This document shows positions 43,799-54,930 of a DNA stretch of 64,000 nucleotides, piece after piece. The DNA is from Phlebopus portentosus (lineage: Eukaryota; Basidiomycota; Agaricomycetes; Boletales; Boletinellaceae): positions 1,364,001 to 1,428,000 of the forward strand of contig JAYXKI010000007.1 of the NCBI GenBank assembly GCA_037892935.1, read 5' to 3'. A program made the position numbers and the translations under genes. The stretch's first letter is position 1, and each line of letters starts with the position of its first letter. Below the pieces are notes generated by a model that saw only the letters and a program-made list of their open reading frames with translations, was not told where the DNA came from and ran no database searches.

Positions 43799-44794
43799 TT
43801 AAATGACCTTGGTTTTGCCACCCCTAACGAGTGCATCAGCCGCGACTTTCAGAGTCTCGCTCACTTCGAACGTTCCCTTCGGAACCAAACCAACCAACTC
43901 CATCATCCGGATAGCGTTGTGGGAGATGAGCTTGCCGCTCCAGCTCATTCGCCAAACGGTGATATAATCCCAGAATGTCTGAGCCTTGCGAATGTCACCT
44001 TCGAGCGGGTAGTACCACGGAATCGGATCAGGGCGCTCTGCGAGGTCCTCTTCGTGCTCAATTTGGAAGCCAACGTTTACGAGGGCTTCACGAGCCTTTG
44101 CGAGAGGTCGCATTTCGGGGATGCCGTTGCCAATTTCAATTTCGTGAGCGAGTTGTCTGTGTTCGGGATTCGAATCGTCCCAGCGGTCGGTCATACACCA
44201 CTCGTACACACCGAAGACACCTCCAGGTTTGAGCACCCGTCGGATTTGGTCGTACACTCCCTCCCATGACGGTGCATGGACAGTCGCTTCAATGGCGTAC
44301 ACCGCATCGAAGCTGTTCTCCCCGAACTGGTCAACGAGTTTCATGAAATCACCCTTCTCGAATGTCACTTGGCCAGACAGTCCCGCCCGAGAGGTGTATT
44401 TGCGAGCGCGATGCACTTGGAACTCATTGTTGTTGACCCCAACGATGTTTACATCCGAGAATCGCGCAATCTCGCGAGCCGGTCCACCCACACCACATCC
44501 GACGTCGAGCACGCGCATACCTGGCTTCAAACCCATCTGCGCGGAGAGGTAGTGCTCATGTCGTGCAAGCGATGCAGCGAAGGCCTCACCCTTGTAGAAT
44601 CGCGAGAAGTGGAAGGATTGTGACCAGCCGTACTCGTAAAGGTCCGTCGCACCGTCGTAATACCCGTTTACAACGTCAGCATAGCTGCTAATACGATTTT
44701 GCGTCCCTTCGTCGTTCTCCTTCGATATGTCCTTTTGCCAGAAGGCGGTATAGTTTTCGACGCGCTTTTCAATGCGACCATCTTTTGTAGACAT
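43799..44794 (-). CDS. erg6: Sterol 24-C-methyltransferase (Erg6)
   Basis: A single open frame of 331 residues starts MSTKDGRIEKRVENYTAFWQ. It carries the sterol-binding signature YEYGWSQSFHFSRFYKGEAF, SAM-binding motif I LDVGCGVGGPAREIARF, the YAIEATVHAPSWEGVY motif, and VLKPGGVFGVYEWCMTD. This matches Erg6, which methylates C-24 of zymosterol in ergosterol synthesis at the ER and lipid droplets. The N-terminus is shorter than in yeast (383 residues), but mushroom homologues often start close to this point. No intron is needed in the coding part. A (TA)n run at about 45038-45052 lies upstream. Neighbour STN1 is on the same strand further upstream. Confidence 0.9.
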   Translation of the reverse strand: MSTKDGRIEKRVENYTAFWQKDISKENDEGTQNRISSYADVVNGYYDGATDLYEYGWSQSFHFSRFYKGEAFAASLARHEHYLSAQMGLKPGMRVLDVGCGVGGPAREIARFSDVNIVGVNNNEFQVHRARKYTSRAGLSGQVTFEKGDFMKLVDQFGENSFDAVYAIEATVHAPSWEGVYDQIRRVLKPGGVFGVYEWCMTDRWDDSNPEHRQLAHEIEIGNGIPEMRPLAKAREALVNVGFQIEHEEDLAERPDPIPWYYPLEGDIRKAQTFWDYITVWRMSWSGKLISHNAIRMMELVGLVPKGTFEVSETLKVAADALVRGGKTKVI

Positions 44795-45456
44795 GGTTAG
44801 CAGACCTGAAAAGTACTATGAGTGACCAAGACAGAAATGTCGAGAAAAAAAGTAGAAAGTCAGAGACTTGAATGGTTCCCGAAGGAATTCCTCCCACTGT
44901 GCAAGCACGTCGAGAGTATTTTGCAGAAAAGTTTTACATCATGCAGTAGCAATTGAACGTAGCACTCACCTCAGCAAGCTGATGGTAGAGAGTGGGTGAG
45001 AGAAGGAGGGACAAAGTCTGACTATAGCCTCTGTATATATATATATATGAGAAGAAGGAACCTCACATTTTTTTCTGTAGATGTCGTTCGATGTTATGTA
45101 ATTTCTCACGATTCAATTGGACTGTCGACTTTCAAATTTTAAGCTCCGCGCGCGACGCGTTTTGAGATCGACGCCTGGTTTATCACGCGTTTCGAACATT
45201 GTCTTTCCATTGCTGCGGTGCTGAGTCCGCTCCGAGACCGAAGCAGGTCTCATTACAAGCCAAATATGAAAAATTTCGAAAAAGAGTGGAAAGGGCGGTA
45301 CGAAGTAAGTATAGAACTGTGATCCCAAAGTGGGTCCATTTATTGCCGCCTATCACTACAAACATCCTATTCAGGGCTTCTTTTTCGGCTTCATTTCTAA
45401 ATAATCGTAAATATTGATCCAAAAGTAAGGAGTACAACATTATAAATTCCTTTAGA
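44795..45456. other. Intergenic promoter region upstream of erg6
   Basis: Contains a TA microsatellite at about 45038-45052 and no supported gene. Frames at 45113-45506 on the minus strand are shadows. Confidence 0.45.
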
Positions 45457-48771: not shown

Positions 48772-49222
48772 TTACTGCTGTTTGCATAATTCCTTAGAAT
48801 GACAACAATCACGTGCTTTTCCGCCGCATCCAACCAAAATTGATTGAAATGGGTTTTTCTCCGTCAATATTCAGCTGTTTTGTCCAGTTAAGCGATGTAA
48901 AATTAGAGAAATCAATAATAGATACATTAACTACAAAAAATTCGGTATAGTTTACTCATATGAATTAGGAGCACAAGGCTACTCAAATTTTTTACTGGAT
49001 TTCAAAGGATTGTAAATTTTAGCAAGCATGTAGTGGCAAAGCAAAATATACAGATTCTTTTTTGCTCTATATACTAATCATTAACTTCTCTAGTTTTACA
49101 TTGTTTAACTGGACCATATGGTTGAATATTGACGGAGAAAAACCCATTTCAATCAATTTTGGTTGGATGCGGCGAAAAAACACGTGATTATTGCCATTCT
49201 AAGGAATCATGCAAACAGCAGT
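48772..49222. repeat. MITE-like element with about 135-bp terminal inverted repeats
   Basis: The left arm 48772-48909 and the right arm 49086-49222 are reverse complements at roughly 90 percent by eye. Shared segments include GAAATGGGTTTTTCTCCGTC, CCGCATCCAACCAAAATTGA and TACTGCTGTTTGCAT. The 176-bp centre has no reading frame. No clear target-site duplication was found. Confidence 0.7.
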
Positions 49223-49565
49223 AACTGCACGAGCTGATACGCATACGGGCGTATGGCGTATAGTACGCCGTATCGTATACTCTATATACGATACGCTACG
49301 CTGCGGAACCCTACCCCTTATGCATCGGCCCATCTGGCCTTTGTAAGTTAGACGGTTCCTTACTGTTGTATACATCATCCATCGGACCGTCCGGATGTCC
49401 GCTAACCCAATTCCAGCGAGCATGAGTAAGTCAGACGGCAGAGCAAAAAGGACCTGAAATAGAATTGATGATTACATGGTTCAACTGGATAAAGAAATAA
49501 CCGAGACGTCGAGGAGGGCAAGGGTAATGGAAAGGCGTGCGTCTGTTGATTACTATGTTCATTTC

Positions 49566-50915
49566 TCAGAGCGCGATTACGATGACCATTATTCCCACAA
49601 AACAAACAACTATTGCGGGACATGCGAGAGACGGATTGACCGTTCCCGCAATTTCATCGAGCGTGGGCGCCTCGCCGTCCGCTCGACTGGCACGCATGAC
49701 CTTGAATATGGGTGCGGCATGGTTCAGGGTGAGTGCAAACTTTTCCTCGGCTGACATTCCTGGTATGGCATCAAGCACCGAGGCGGGGTCTGCTTTGTAC
49801 CGGTTACGAAGTCCCGGTTGAAGAGCAAGGTCCACCATCAATTGACGGAGTGGACGGGAGCCACGCAAGAACTGATGGTCGTTGGGTATGGTGTGGTTCG
49901 TGAGGTGGCTGACTGCCTCACGCTCGATGGGCCCATAGGCAGGCGGATTGGGCGACTCGGCGCTAGCCCATTTCGAGCGAGGATAGACATGCATCACGTG
50001 CTCTACGGGAGACAGAGAGAGCCTGAGCTTCTGCAACATATCCTGGTCGATATGCGCCATGCTGCGTGGCGGCAGATAAAAGGTAGAAGTGGTCGTGATC
50101 TGTTTGACGACTTCTTCTTTGCGCAGATCGGCAATTGTAAATTCGTCCATGACGGTCGTAGATTGAGGCAGAACTGCGCCAATGTAGTGGACGACTTTAT
50201 GATCGAGACCAAAATCCTCCTCGAGGCGGTCGACGAGGATATGGAATTCACGGTTCTAAAGAGATATCAAATAGAAAGCCAGTCAACAAACTAGAAATGC
50301 CCATACATCAAAGACCATCGTGTCAACTCCAACACTACCGACTTGCCAAATAATGTTGTGGATCGATGGATCGAGTTTCTTCTTGCAAACCAGGAGGCCG
50401 GTCGCCTCCTGCGACATGCAGCCAGGGACCGCTGGATCGAACCCGATGTCACTGAACATGTAATCCTCTGCAGATACACCTGGAAGCATCTTTGCTATAT
50501 AGCCTTCGTCCCGAGCAATAGCGATGGCTCTGTGAGATGGAGACACGAAAACTCCGGGATGGCCGTAAAAGATCCCCAGCACGTTGTATCCCCCTCGGAC
50601 ATCTCTCAACATGACCTGAAATCCTCAGAATGTCAGACCTCGAGTTCAAACGTCAGATGAAGGGAAACTTACCTCGCACATTTGCACGTATGTCTCGTAG
50701 CGCATTTTGTTCGTGTCATAATAAACGGTTAAGTCGAAACAATGGCTCGAATCCTTGCTTTTGTCTAGGATGAATGCCTCTGTAGCTGGATCGGCGACAG
50801 CGTAGTGTATCTTGTCCGCCTCTTGAATGTACGACAGTGTCTCAAGGGTGATGTGCCCGATAGAGGCAATACCTGAACCGGCAATAGTCAAAGTGCCCTT
50901 TTGTGACCCAGCCAT
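49566..50915 (-). CDS. Borosin RiPP precursor: OphMA-like alpha-N-methyltransferase fused to its own core peptide
   Basis: Three exons (50915-50673, 50615-50307, 50255-49566) with GT-AG introns encode 413 residues, close to the 417 of omphalotin precursor OphMA. Residues 1-250 are a tetrapyrrole-methylase-type SAM enzyme: [66 protein letters not shown] and [19 protein letters not shown]. Arg72, Tyr76 and Tyr98 occur at the same numbers as the OphMA residues reported as catalytically important. The helical clasp region follows ([43 protein letters not shown]). The C-terminus ends [18 protein letters not shown] then stop, a hydrophobic core-like peptide. Such proteins methylate backbone nitrogens of their own C-terminus in trans within a dimer, then a protease releases the peptide. 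ATG 50915 was chosen because its N-terminus aligns with OphMA; an in-frame ATG at 51002 exists upstream. Confidence 0.92.
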
Positions 50916-51076: not shown

Positions 51077-51222
51077 GGGCTCCAACACAATTGAATGTAC
51101 AATGTTATAGTTCACATCCAAGGGTCAGTTAACGATACGGCAGACTGAGAAACCTCTTTCGCTAACTGAACCTTGGATGTGAACTATAACTTTGTACATT
51201 CAGTTGTGTTTAGCCCGCGTAA
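51077..51222. repeat. Hairpin repeat, about 48-bp arms
   Basis: The arm ACACAATTGAATGTACAATGTTATAG...CCAAGGGTCAGTTA is followed, after about 35 bp, by its near-perfect reverse complement (TAACTGAACCTTGGATGTGAACTATAACTTTGTACATTC). It could fold into a long stem and looks like a short MITE. Confidence 0.65.
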
Positions 51223-52852: not shown

Positions 52853-54930
52853 ATGACGGCACTCAGCCCACGTGTACTTATTGTAGGTTTACTCCAAATT
52901 CCGACTTTACTGTTTCATTAAAATTCGCAGGTTGGCGCAGGACCGACAGGTCTTGTCGCCGCCATATCTCTCGCTCAAAATGGTATCTCTGTTCGCATCA
53001 TCGACAAGTTAGCTGGTCCTCGGGTCGGACAGCGCGGGGCGGCCTTACAGGTCAGTTTTAATGGTGTTTCCTCAATTCATATGGATGTCTGACCCTTAAA
53101 ATCAGCCGCGTGTTTTTGAACTGTTCAGCATCCTCGGTGTTGCTGGCGACATTCTGAAGGAGGCATCACCCCTTCAGCCTCCCATATGCCGCGATATGCC
53201 TCTAGAATCGCAGCCAGTCCCACCTACAAGTCTCCCGTGGCACGTAAAGCCGTCCCCTGATATCCCATACGTGAGCTCGATGGTCATTTTAGTCCCGCCT
53301 CAGTTAATTTCATCGCTTTAGTCTAACTTCCTGATGCTTGGCCAAGATCGCACGGAAGCGATCTTGCGCGCACACTTGGAAAACTGTTATCATATCAGAG
53401 TAAATTATGGAACGACTCTCGTGGCTTTCGAACAGAATGAGAATAGCGTTACTACACATCTTATAAGAACCTCTGATGACGGAGGTGATGCCAAAGAGAT
53501 CTTAAACGTTGGATGGCTCATCGGAGCAGATGGTCCGAAAAGTAGATCCTCTTTTTTTAATATTAGATCGCACACTCATTTGCTCATCTAGGTAGCATCC
53601 GCAAACACTTAGGGCTGACTTATTTCGGCGAAACGCGCGATAACCAGAAATTTATCACTGGTGACGTGCATGTTCGAAGTGGCTTGAACAGACACGTAGG
53701 TTCATTTTCAACCTCTTAACACAGCACATGTTCACTTTGTATTGGTGAATAAGTTCTCACATAGATGGGGTGATTTCACCGTCAAAGGTATCAGCCTGAG
53801 GCCATCAGAATGTCAAAATGATACATTATTCAGCTTTATTATTGGTGGTTCGGAAGTCCCTTATAGCGAACTGATGTCCGACCATCAGACTCTTTTGGAC
53901 TACATGATAAAGACTACGGGATGCACGAATCTCAAGTTCGGGGAACTGGTCCACGTCGACGATTGGAGGCACGCCGAATTTCTATCTATATGTATATGTT
54001 TTCTGAGACTGATAGTGTAGACCTATATAGGCCGAACATTCGAATGGCAAATAATTTCTCTAAGGGTAGAGTTTTTATTGCCGGTGGTGAGCAGTTGTGT
54101 TCGCTTCTGAATGGCAAATTGATGAGGTACGACAGACGCCGCGCATATTCACTGCACTAGTGGCGGCCAAGGGGTGGTGTCTTGTGTACAGGATGTGGTA
54201 AGTGGCGTCAGTAGTGTAGCACAGTATAATCATTGTCTCATACAAGTAGATGAATCTGTGTTGGAAGCTTGCTCTCGTCGAGTGCGGCGTCTCGTCGCCT
54301 ACGTTATTGTCCACATACGATGAAGAACGACGTCCCGTCATCAAAGACATGCTCTCCATTACGACTGCTATTTTCGACCAGATCGTGACGGGTAAAGTGA
54401 CTGCCTGGCCGAAATCATTATTGGACCTCCGTCAATTTGGCGTCAACTACCGCTGGAGTTCGATTATCGTAGACGATAGACCCGATGCTGATCCCGTCGG
54501 AACATATGATGCCACTCTCGGCAAGCCGCGTGCTGGCGATCGTGCGCCTGAAGCACCAGGACTCATTGACGTGAAGAATACAACAAAAACGTCAGTGTTC
54601 AAAATGCTCGTATATTTTCGGCACACCGTACTTGTGTTCACCGACACTCTTGCGGAGGCGACACCATTTATAAACGAGTTAAAGAGGACGCCAGCGAACA
54701 TGTTTCAGTGGGCGGTCATCTTACCTCAGTCTATGGTGTCCAGCCGGATAGGGATAGCTCCATCAGTCGAAGGCCTGCTGCTGATTGACTATGACAATCA
54801 CGCCTATACGAACTATTTGCCTGATGAAAGTCGGAGGGTCGTTGTCATTCGTCCTGATGGTGTCATTGGAGCACTAACCGGCAGTCCTATTGGCCTTCAG
54901 AAATATCTCGAATTGATTTTCGTAGCCTAG
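52853..54930 (+). CDS. FAD-dependent monooxygenase (PheA/TfdB-type, FAD_binding_3)
   Basis: Starts MTALSPRVLI at 52853; an intron (about 52880-52930) joins it to VGAGPTGLVAAISLAQNG, the GxGxxG dinucleotide fold. Further motifs are VGQRGAALQ/PRVFELF, GWLIGADGPKS (DG motif) and GRVFIAGGDAAHIH (GD motif, joined across an intron ending near 54131) followed by GGQG, then MNLCWKLALV and YDEERRPVIKDM. The C-terminal part is thioredoxin-like (FKMLVYFRHTVLVFTD, SSRIGIAPSVEGLLLIDYDNHAYTN). Length and domain order match class A flavoprotein hydroxylases, which add one oxygen to an activated substrate using NAD(P)H. The segment near 53990-54060 has a frame that I could not fully join. It lies 1.9 kb from the borosin gene on the opposite strand, so peptide hydroxylation is a possible job but is unproven. 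Confidence 0.8.

What the first reader, a model, noticed from the sequence alone, without database searches (positions are those of the whole stretch)
49566..50915. Borosin-type self-N-methylating peptide precursor
The gene encodes a methyltransferase fused to its own substrate peptide, the hallmark of borosins, which are among the few ribosomal peptides with backbone N-methylation. Seen: SAM-domain motifs, a clasp region, total length 413, and Arg72, Tyr76 and Tyr98 at OphMA numbering. Known: OphMA from Omphalotus makes omphalotin this way. Inferred: this copy is active, as all three exons join without breaks.
Basis: partly seen in the sequence, partly recalled or inferred. Interest (0 to 1): 0.93.

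Follow-up and report, generated by a model that had tools for sequence, protein, structure and literature searches.

The report
Sanghuang mushroom borosin gene plus monooxygenase
A medicinal wood-rotting mushroom carries an apparently intact gene for an enzyme that should methylate the backbone of its own tail peptide, next to a flavin oxygenase whose closest named relatives come from other fungi with such genes, which makes it a new but recognisable member of a small peptide family.

Summary
In detail: a minus-strand, three-exon gene (50915-49566) encodes 413 aa with Arg72, Tyr76 and Tyr98. It is a fused fungal borosin precursor: best solved relatives are MroMA1/2 (507-508 bits), then OphMA (342); no stand-alone tetrapyrrole methylase matched at E 0.001. 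The hydrophobic end after Pro397, [16 protein letters not shown], is the probable core. It is not new to databases: a Sanghuangporus 'baumii' record (probably strain 821) has the identical protein, named 'tetrapyrrole methylase' and missing three residues at an exon edge. Two things go beyond the finding. The gene groups with Pleurotus and other non-Hymenochaetales borosins, not with the other Hymenochaetales ones (AU p 3.5e-43). And the next gene, divergent, 1.9 kb away, is an FAD monooxygenase of a small subfamily; the five named species of it outside Sanghuangporus all have a borosin's list, and in Gymnopilus and Ceratobasidium AG-I both proteins report contigs of identical length. No prolyl oligopeptidase gene was found in the window; the one found is on another contig. 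Activity, methylation and product are untested. New member of a known kind; the borosin-monooxygenase pair is the interesting part.

The parts
50673..50915 (-). borosin precursor exon 1 (residues 1-81; R72 codon 50702-50700, Y76 codon 50690-50688)
   Evidence: GTAAGT donor, frame; residues 1-84 matched here at 98%
50616..50672 (-). intron 1, 57 nt, GT-AG, phase 0
   Evidence: 5 of the 120 listed relatives are deposited as beginning within 8 residues of this junction, as expected if gene finders missed a first exon ending at the same place (suggestive only)
50307..50615 (-). borosin precursor exon 2 (residues 82-184; Y98 codon 50567-50565)
   Evidence: V-F-D at its end supported by 11 aligned relatives, absent from deposited P0001
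50256..50306 (-). intron 2, 51 nt, GT-AG, phase 0
49566..50255 (-). borosin precursor exon 3 (residues 185-413 and TGA): end of methyltransferase domain, clasp, C-terminal peptide
   Evidence: (alignment to MroMA2 to residue 399)
49569..49616 (-). probable core peptide, residues 398-413, [16 protein letters not shown], after Pro397; Gly405 codon 49595-49593
   Evidence: mean Kyte-Doolittle 3.3; position matches the C-termini of OphMA and MroMA1. Core borders are inferred
52853..54930 (+). FAD_binding_3 (class A) flavin monooxygenase gene, about 550 aa, divergent neighbour, probable tailoring enzyme
   Evidence: first exon model; 3 mismatches and one 11-residue gap to S. sanghuang ACEPAF_1541; tree
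51084..51210 (.). inverted repeat (52-nt arms, 92%) about 170 nt upstream of the borosin start; no other copy found in this genome
48772..49224 (.). MITE-like fold-back element (185-nt arms, 84%) about 340 nt downstream of the borosin stop; 13 other places in the genome

Best explanation
The gene encodes a fused fungal borosin precursor. The N-terminal TP-methylase-fold domain binds SAM; the clasp threads the C-terminal peptide into the active site, probably of the partner subunit of a dimer, and successive backbone amides of the hydrophobic tail (probably within residues 398-413) are methylated. A host protease and/or the unlinked prolyl oligopeptidase then releases the peptide. The neighbouring class A flavin monooxygenase probably oxidises the peptide and belongs to the same pathway. 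Shown here: gene structure, homology, catalytic residues, the sequence of the tail, adjacency and co-occurrence of the monooxygenase. Inferred: automethylation, core borders, release, oxidation. Split of confidence: fused borosin precursor 0.95; monooxygenase in the same pathway 0.7; macrocyclic product 0.4.
For: Homology over residues 2-399 to crystallised MroMA2 (508 bits) and over 2-389 to MroMA1 (507 bits), then dbOphMA (352) and OphMA (342). Residues whose mutation abolished detectable methylation in OphMA (R72, Y76, Y98; PMC6108569, passages) and Y66, Q172 (mutants reduced) are kept in 12 of 12 aligned rows; in 45 rows R72, Y98, Y66, Q172 are invariant and Y76 nearly so. The tail beyond the clasp is hydrophobic, as in the OphMA, dbOphMA and MroMA1 rows. 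Identical protein, bar a differently set exon edge, in P0001. Monooxygenase: its closest named relatives P0121-P0128 come from Sanghuangporus and five other fungi; the five all have a borosin's list, against 4 of 60 other species's list (Fisher p 1.5e-5; genera 4 of 4 against 4 of 34, p 9e-4, names transcribed by hand). Subfamily monophyletic (100/100, 8 rows). Matching sister pairs in both trees: Sanghuangporus+Pleurotus, Gymnopilus+Moniliophthora, Ceratobasidium AG-I+370.
Against: No expression, methylation or product data. Tyr63 of OphMA is Thr here (as in MroMA1); Y63F kept reduced activity in OphMA. No prolyl oligopeptidase found in the window (parts not scanned are named in Tried and rejected). 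In the S. 'baumii' records P0001 and P0122, taken to be one assembly, the borosin (contig 397,699) and the monooxygenase (contig 407,201) are on different contigs, and no borosin named S. sanghuang ACEPAF, which has the monooxygenase, is among the 120 listed of 269 hits. The subfamily border was set by a score gap after the names were seen; species are not independent. The AlphaFold monomer superposes poorly on the crystal chains as a whole (rmsd about 19 A, TM about 0.55), which a domain swap would explain but which I did not test.
Confidence: 0.85

Rival explanations
1. The protein is a methyltransferase of this fold whose hydrophobic tail is a membrane anchor or relic and not a substrate.
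For: The last 16 residues could pass for a membrane helix (mean hydropathy 3.3); the AlphaFold monomer draws residues 394-409 of P0001 as a helix at low confidence.
Against: The tail sits where OphMA and MroMA1 carry their C-terminal peptides, which are also hydrophobic; the 398-aa S. baumii P0026 and 405-aa PocMA homologues end in similar hydrophobic tails; residues for peptide-amide methylation are kept.
Confidence: 0.04
2. Ordinary stand-alone tetrapyrrole methylase, as the databases name it.
For: Pfam TP_methylase is the only family matched; deposited name 'tetrapyrrole methylase'.
Against: The 25 PDB sequences matched are MroMA, dbOphMA, OphA/OphMA and SonM-type entries (8t1s named only 'Alpha-N-methyltransferase'); clasp and tail present; the genome's other TP_methylase on C1 matches the Pfam model much better (153 bits).
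Confidence: 0.01
3. The flavin monooxygenase is a chance neighbour and not part of the pathway.
For: Different contigs in the S. 'baumii' records P0001 and P0122; no borosin listed for ACEPAF; such enzymes are very common in these fungi (6794 hits at E 1e-20).
Confidence: 0.25
4. The gene is intact but silent, or its product is never matured because a dedicated peptidase was lost.
For: No linked prolyl oligopeptidase found; MITE and hairpin close to the gene; expression not tested.
Against: Protein identical in the deposited record P0001, whose contig length (397,699) differs from the window's contig; frame, splice sites and catalytic residues intact. OphP showed no activity on full-length OphMA, so first release is ascribed to another host protease (PMC12235650, passages).
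Confidence: 0.15

Closest known systems
MroMA1/MroMA2, Mycena rosella fused borosin methyltransferase (PDB 7TWK, 7TWL, 7TWM)
   Same: Whole architecture, 62% identity (P0012), catalytic residues, Thr at OphMA position 63
   Different: Tail sequence and length; the window protein is sister to Pleurotus, not to the Mycena pair
OphMA and the omphalotin cluster (Omphalotus olearius)
   Same: Fused architecture, R72/Y76/Y98/Y66/Q172, Pro before and Gly inside a Val/Ile-rich tail
   Different: 43% identity (P0074); T63; no SVMSTE-type polar follower; no prolyl oligopeptidase found next to it
Pleurotus pulmonarius borosin P0003 and monooxygenase P0123
   Same: Sisters of the window protein (100/99) and of the Sanghuangporus monooxygenase (100/100); similar tail with Pro, Phe, Gly and eight more residues
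   Different: 63% and 60% identity; linkage in Pleurotus not testable (different contig lengths in the listings)
Sanghuangporus 'baumii' tetrapyrrole methylase P0001 (probably strain 821)
   Same: Identical protein apart from the exon edge
   Different: Deposited model lacks V-F-D at the end of exon 2; named as a tetrapyrrole methylase
Class A flavin monooxygenases (RdmE, VibO, phenol 2-monooxygenase, rifampin monooxygenase)
   Same: FAD_binding_3 domain, VGAGPTG and GDAAH motifs
   Different: Own subfamily; all its named members found come from fungi with a listed borosin (Sanghuangporus counted as one)

Membership tests
Fused fungal borosin | N-terminal TP-methylase-fold SAM methyltransferase domain | tested here: met
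   Pfam PF00590 51.9 bits; PDB borosins at E 1e-151; Foldseek E 1e-45 with the model of P0001
Fused fungal borosin | Catalytic and peptide-binding residues R72, Y76, Y98 (also Y66, Q172) | tested here: met
   these columns identical in 12 of 12 rows; Y63 is T here, as in MroMA1
Fused fungal borosin | Clasp region between methyltransferase domain and tail | tested here: met
   Alignment to MroMA2 to residue 399; helices modelled between residues 290 and 384 of P0001
Fused fungal borosin | Core peptide at the C-terminus of the same polypeptide | tested here: met
   Sequence only: residues 398-413; borders inferred
Fused fungal borosin | Backbone N-methylation of that peptide | not testable with these tools
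   Needs mass spectrometry
Fused fungal borosin | Interlocked (domain-swapped) homodimer | tested here: inconclusive
   Only a monomer was modelled; whole-chain rmsd about 19 A to crystal chains
Omphalotin-type gene cluster | Linked prolyl oligopeptidase (OphP-like) | tested here: not met
   Peptidase_S9 hits on C3, C4, C15, C19 and Peptidase_S9_N hits on C3 only, none on the window's C7 (counts are lower bounds)
Omphalotin-type gene cluster | Polar follower after the core (SVMSTE, SVVSSA) | tested here: not met
   Tail ends IMVIVIAL
Class A flavin monooxygenase (neighbour) | FAD-binding GxGxxG and GD motifs in an FAD_binding_3 domain | tested here: met
   VGAGPTG and GDAAH (motif names recalled), Pfam PF01494

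The most novel reading that the evidence does not exclude
There is a distinct lineage of borosin pathways, spread over Hymenochaetales, Agaricales and Cantharellales and probably moved between orders as a unit, in which the self-methylating precursor is paired with a dedicated class A flavin monooxygenase and works without a linked prolyl oligopeptidase, so that the product is an oxidised, multiply N-methylated peptide released by a general host protease.
Probability: 0.35. Interest if true: 0.65.

Novelty: new member of a known kind. Interest (0 to 1): 0.42.

Why it matters
It adds an apparently intact borosin precursor with its own core to Sanghuangporus, a medicinal mushroom genus, under a database name (tetrapyrrole methylase) that hides it. 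The linked monooxygenase subfamily gives a handle: it may mark borosin loci in poorly annotated genomes and predicts an oxidised product, both of which can be tested by co-expression. The split between two borosin lineages within one genus, one of them grouping with Agaricales proteins, makes the history of these genes (transfer, or old duplication and loss) testable.

Tried and rejected
Second borosin in this genome: searched with the window protein, with S. baumii P0026 and with the Pfam family; the two protein searches found only this gene, the Pfam search also the C1 gene (the tool scores only its best candidates). Gene cluster with P450, transporter or peptidase: Pfam scans of 30 chosen open frames (one search lists 141 frames of 100 aa or more) and stop-read-through scans of 51-60 kb and 59.5-64 kb on both strands, 36-45 kb on + and 39-48 kb on - gave the monooxygenase, a sterol methyltransferase, an AA9 enzyme and, elsewhere in the window, unrelated families (Cys_Met_Meta_PP, CTLH, CBS; Perilipin and Hira below cut-off). 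Not scanned: + strand 45-51 kb, - strand 36-39 kb, and - strand 48-51 kb apart from the borosin; below 36 kb only chosen frames. Genome's POP as OphP: its rough protein is nearer GmPOPB (691 bits) than OphP (504 bits) and lies on C3, so there is no case for a dedicated cyclase. First monooxygenase exon model had two 29-nt introns and looked broken; comparison with P0121 removed most of that doubt (one intron is longer; 'W-RPNIRM' is joined in P0121, which would need a GC donor here), so a decayed-gene reading was dropped. Rearrangement to the Arf-GAP locus on C8, suggested by the chimeric P0122: no borosin or clear monooxygenase trace in C8:877-893 kb, only another MITE copy; left unexplained. 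Host: first taken for S. baumii from the deposited name; S. sanghuang fits better (PMC12001456, passages). Literature listings in which I saw no paper on a Sanghuangporus borosin or on a borosin with a flavin monooxygenase: (titles, counts and abstract starts; of the Sanghuangporus papers listed I looked at passages of PMC12001456 and PMC10219462 only). Quijano et al. 2019, the main survey, was not read.

Full report
What is there. The window comes from a 38.4 Mb fungal assembly of 23 contigs. The nearest deposited protein, P0001 of Sanghuangporus 'baumii', is letter for letter the same except that it lacks V-F-D at the end of exon 2. The 11 relatives aligned all have residues there, so the window model is the better one.

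Which fungus. P0001 and P0122 are named S. baumii without a strain; I take them to be strain 821, because P0026 bears the ACEPAG tags of another S. baumii record. PMC12001456 (passages) says that the 821 assembly (GCA_001481415), deposited as S. baumii, is assumed to be S. sanghuang. The window's monooxygenase differs from S. sanghuang ACEPAF_1541 at 3 aligned positions plus one 11-residue gap that comes from my exon model. A search with P0026 found only the window's gene here. S. sanghuang is therefore the likely host; this is an inference.

What the protein is. phmmer against the PDB gives MroMA2, MroMCspL and MroMA1 of Mycena rosella (507-508 bits), then dbOphMA (352) and OphMA (342), then the split-borosin enzyme SonM (124); the 25 matches are of these kinds as named (8t1s only as 'Alpha-N-methyltransferase'). 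Pfam sees only TP_methylase. In the 12-row alignment R72, Y76, Y98, Y66 and Q172 are identical in all rows, while OphMA Y63 is T here and in MroMA1; in 45 rows Y76 is nearly invariant and the other four invariant. In OphMA, R72A, R72K, Y76F, Y98F and Y98A showed no detectable methylation after purification, while Y63F, Y66F, Q172A and W400A showed reduced methylation (PMC6108569, passages). AlphaFold2 on P0001 gave mean pLDDT 88.6, and Foldseek returned borosin structures as the top hits (E 1e-45), with a poor whole-chain fit (rmsd about 19 A, TM about 0.55), as a monomer model of an interlocked dimer may give; I did not test that.

The tail. After P397 come 16 mostly hydrophobic residues, [16 protein letters not shown], to the end of the protein. 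In OphMA a Pro precedes the tail, GmPOPB and Proalanase cleave OphMA-derived peptides after a Pro, and OphP cyclises at a methylated Gly (PMC12235650, passages). Here a Gly at 405 would leave an 8-residue ring and an 8-residue follower, or the whole tail could be the core; the sequence cannot decide. Pleurotus P0003 has a similar layout (Pro, Phe, Gly, eight more residues).

History. In trees of 49 and 25 proteins the window protein is sister to Pleurotus pulmonarius P0003 (100/99 in both). Armillaria gallica joins them weakly (81/59) in the first and is unresolved inside a supported ten-row clade (98/97) in the second. Fomitiporia and the other two Sanghuangporus borosins form their own clade (100/98 and 97/98). 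Forcing the window protein into that clade costs 116 log-likelihood units (AU p 3.5e-43; the group was chosen after seeing the first tree). Transfer, or an old duplicate kept by chance, would both give this; I cannot separate them.

The neighbour. An FAD_binding_3 monooxygenase starts 1.9 kb away on the other strand, head to head. Its closest relatives are P0121 and P0122 (Sanghuangporus), P0123 (Pleurotus pulmonarius), P0124 (Moniliophthora roreri), P0125 (Ceratobasidium AG-I), P0126 (Gymnopilus junonius), P0127 and P0128 (Ceratobasidium 370) and an unnamed metagenome piece P0129 (450 bits); then generic enzymes begin at 420 bits. Searching with P0126 puts P0124, P0121, P0125, P0123 and P0127 first; three generic enzymes outscore the shorter P0128 and many outscore the chimeric P0122. 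The tree of 29 rows, without P0122 and P0129, unites the subfamily at 100/100. The five named species outside Sanghuangporus all have a borosin among the 120 listed hits, against 4 of 60 other species's list (p 1.5e-5; genera 4 of 4 against 4 of 34, p 9e-4). The subfamily border was set by the score gap, after seeing the names, and species are not independent. For Pleurotus, Moniliophthora and Ceratobasidium 370 the contig lengths differ, mostly on small contigs or other assemblies, and decide nothing. Against the pair, P0001 and P0122 sit on contigs of different length; P0122 is a chimera of an Arf-GAP gene, a second partial copy and a monooxygenase, and no borosin is listed for ACEPAF. Sister pairs agree in both trees (Sanghuangporus+Pleurotus, Gymnopilus+Moniliophthora, the two Ceratobasidium). 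I take the pair as probably functional (0.7). By sequence the enzyme resembles aromatic hydroxylases and related class A enzymes (RdmE, VibO); which residue it might oxidise is open.

What is missing. No Peptidase_S9 match on the window's contig; the only gene with Peptidase_S9_N matches is on C3, and its rough protein is nearer GmPOPB than OphP. PMC12235650 (passages) reports no activity of OphP on full-length OphMA and ascribes the first cut to a host protease not yet identified, so a missing linked POP does not exclude a product but makes a ring less certain.

Novelty. [quoted passage not shown] The listings showed no paper on a Sanghuangporus borosin or on a flavin monooxygenase paired with borosins, but the key survey, Quijano et al. 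2019, was not read. Hence: new member of a known kind, with a possible new pathway variant.

Noticed in passing
window 48772-49224: Fold-back (MITE-like) element, 185-nt arms, with 13 other places in the genome (best-strand identity 76-95%, some partial); the closest full copy (95%) is at C8:890613-891076.
   Followed up: partly
window 51084-51210: 52-nt inverted repeat (92%) with a 23-nt loop in the borosin upstream region, no other copy found in the genome; a possible hairpin in the promoter or leader.
   Followed up: partly
P0122 (A7U60_g5348, S. 'baumii'): Deposited protein joins an Arf-GAP domain, a 78-residue second monooxygenase piece (91% identical) and a monooxygenase; in the window's genome the best Arf-GAP match is on C8 and no second copy was found. 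Gene-model error, misassembly or rearrangement.
   Followed up: partly
P0006 (Astraeus odoratus) and P0100 (Clonostachys chloroleuca): Borosin homologues whose C-termini are tandem repeats (DEKAVLLQSF-like; TTAIIKG-like), as in multi-core precursors.
   Followed up: no
P0040 (Mycena rosella): Borosin homologue annotated as fused to a 60S acidic ribosomal protein domain; probably a gene-model join.
   Followed up: no
Rhizopogon vinicolor and Astraeus odoratus entries: Many borosin paralogues per genome, several marked partial, which suggests an expanding and decaying family there.
   Followed up: no
window 43802-44815 (-) and about 36.9 kb (+): Sterol C-methyltransferase-like gene (Sterol_MT_C) and an AA9 polysaccharide monooxygenase gene; ordinary neighbours.
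   Followed up: no
G000:C1:250803-251447: The genome's other TP_methylase match, in a 548-aa frame, probably the sirohaem-type enzyme of primary metabolism (role inferred).
   Followed up: no
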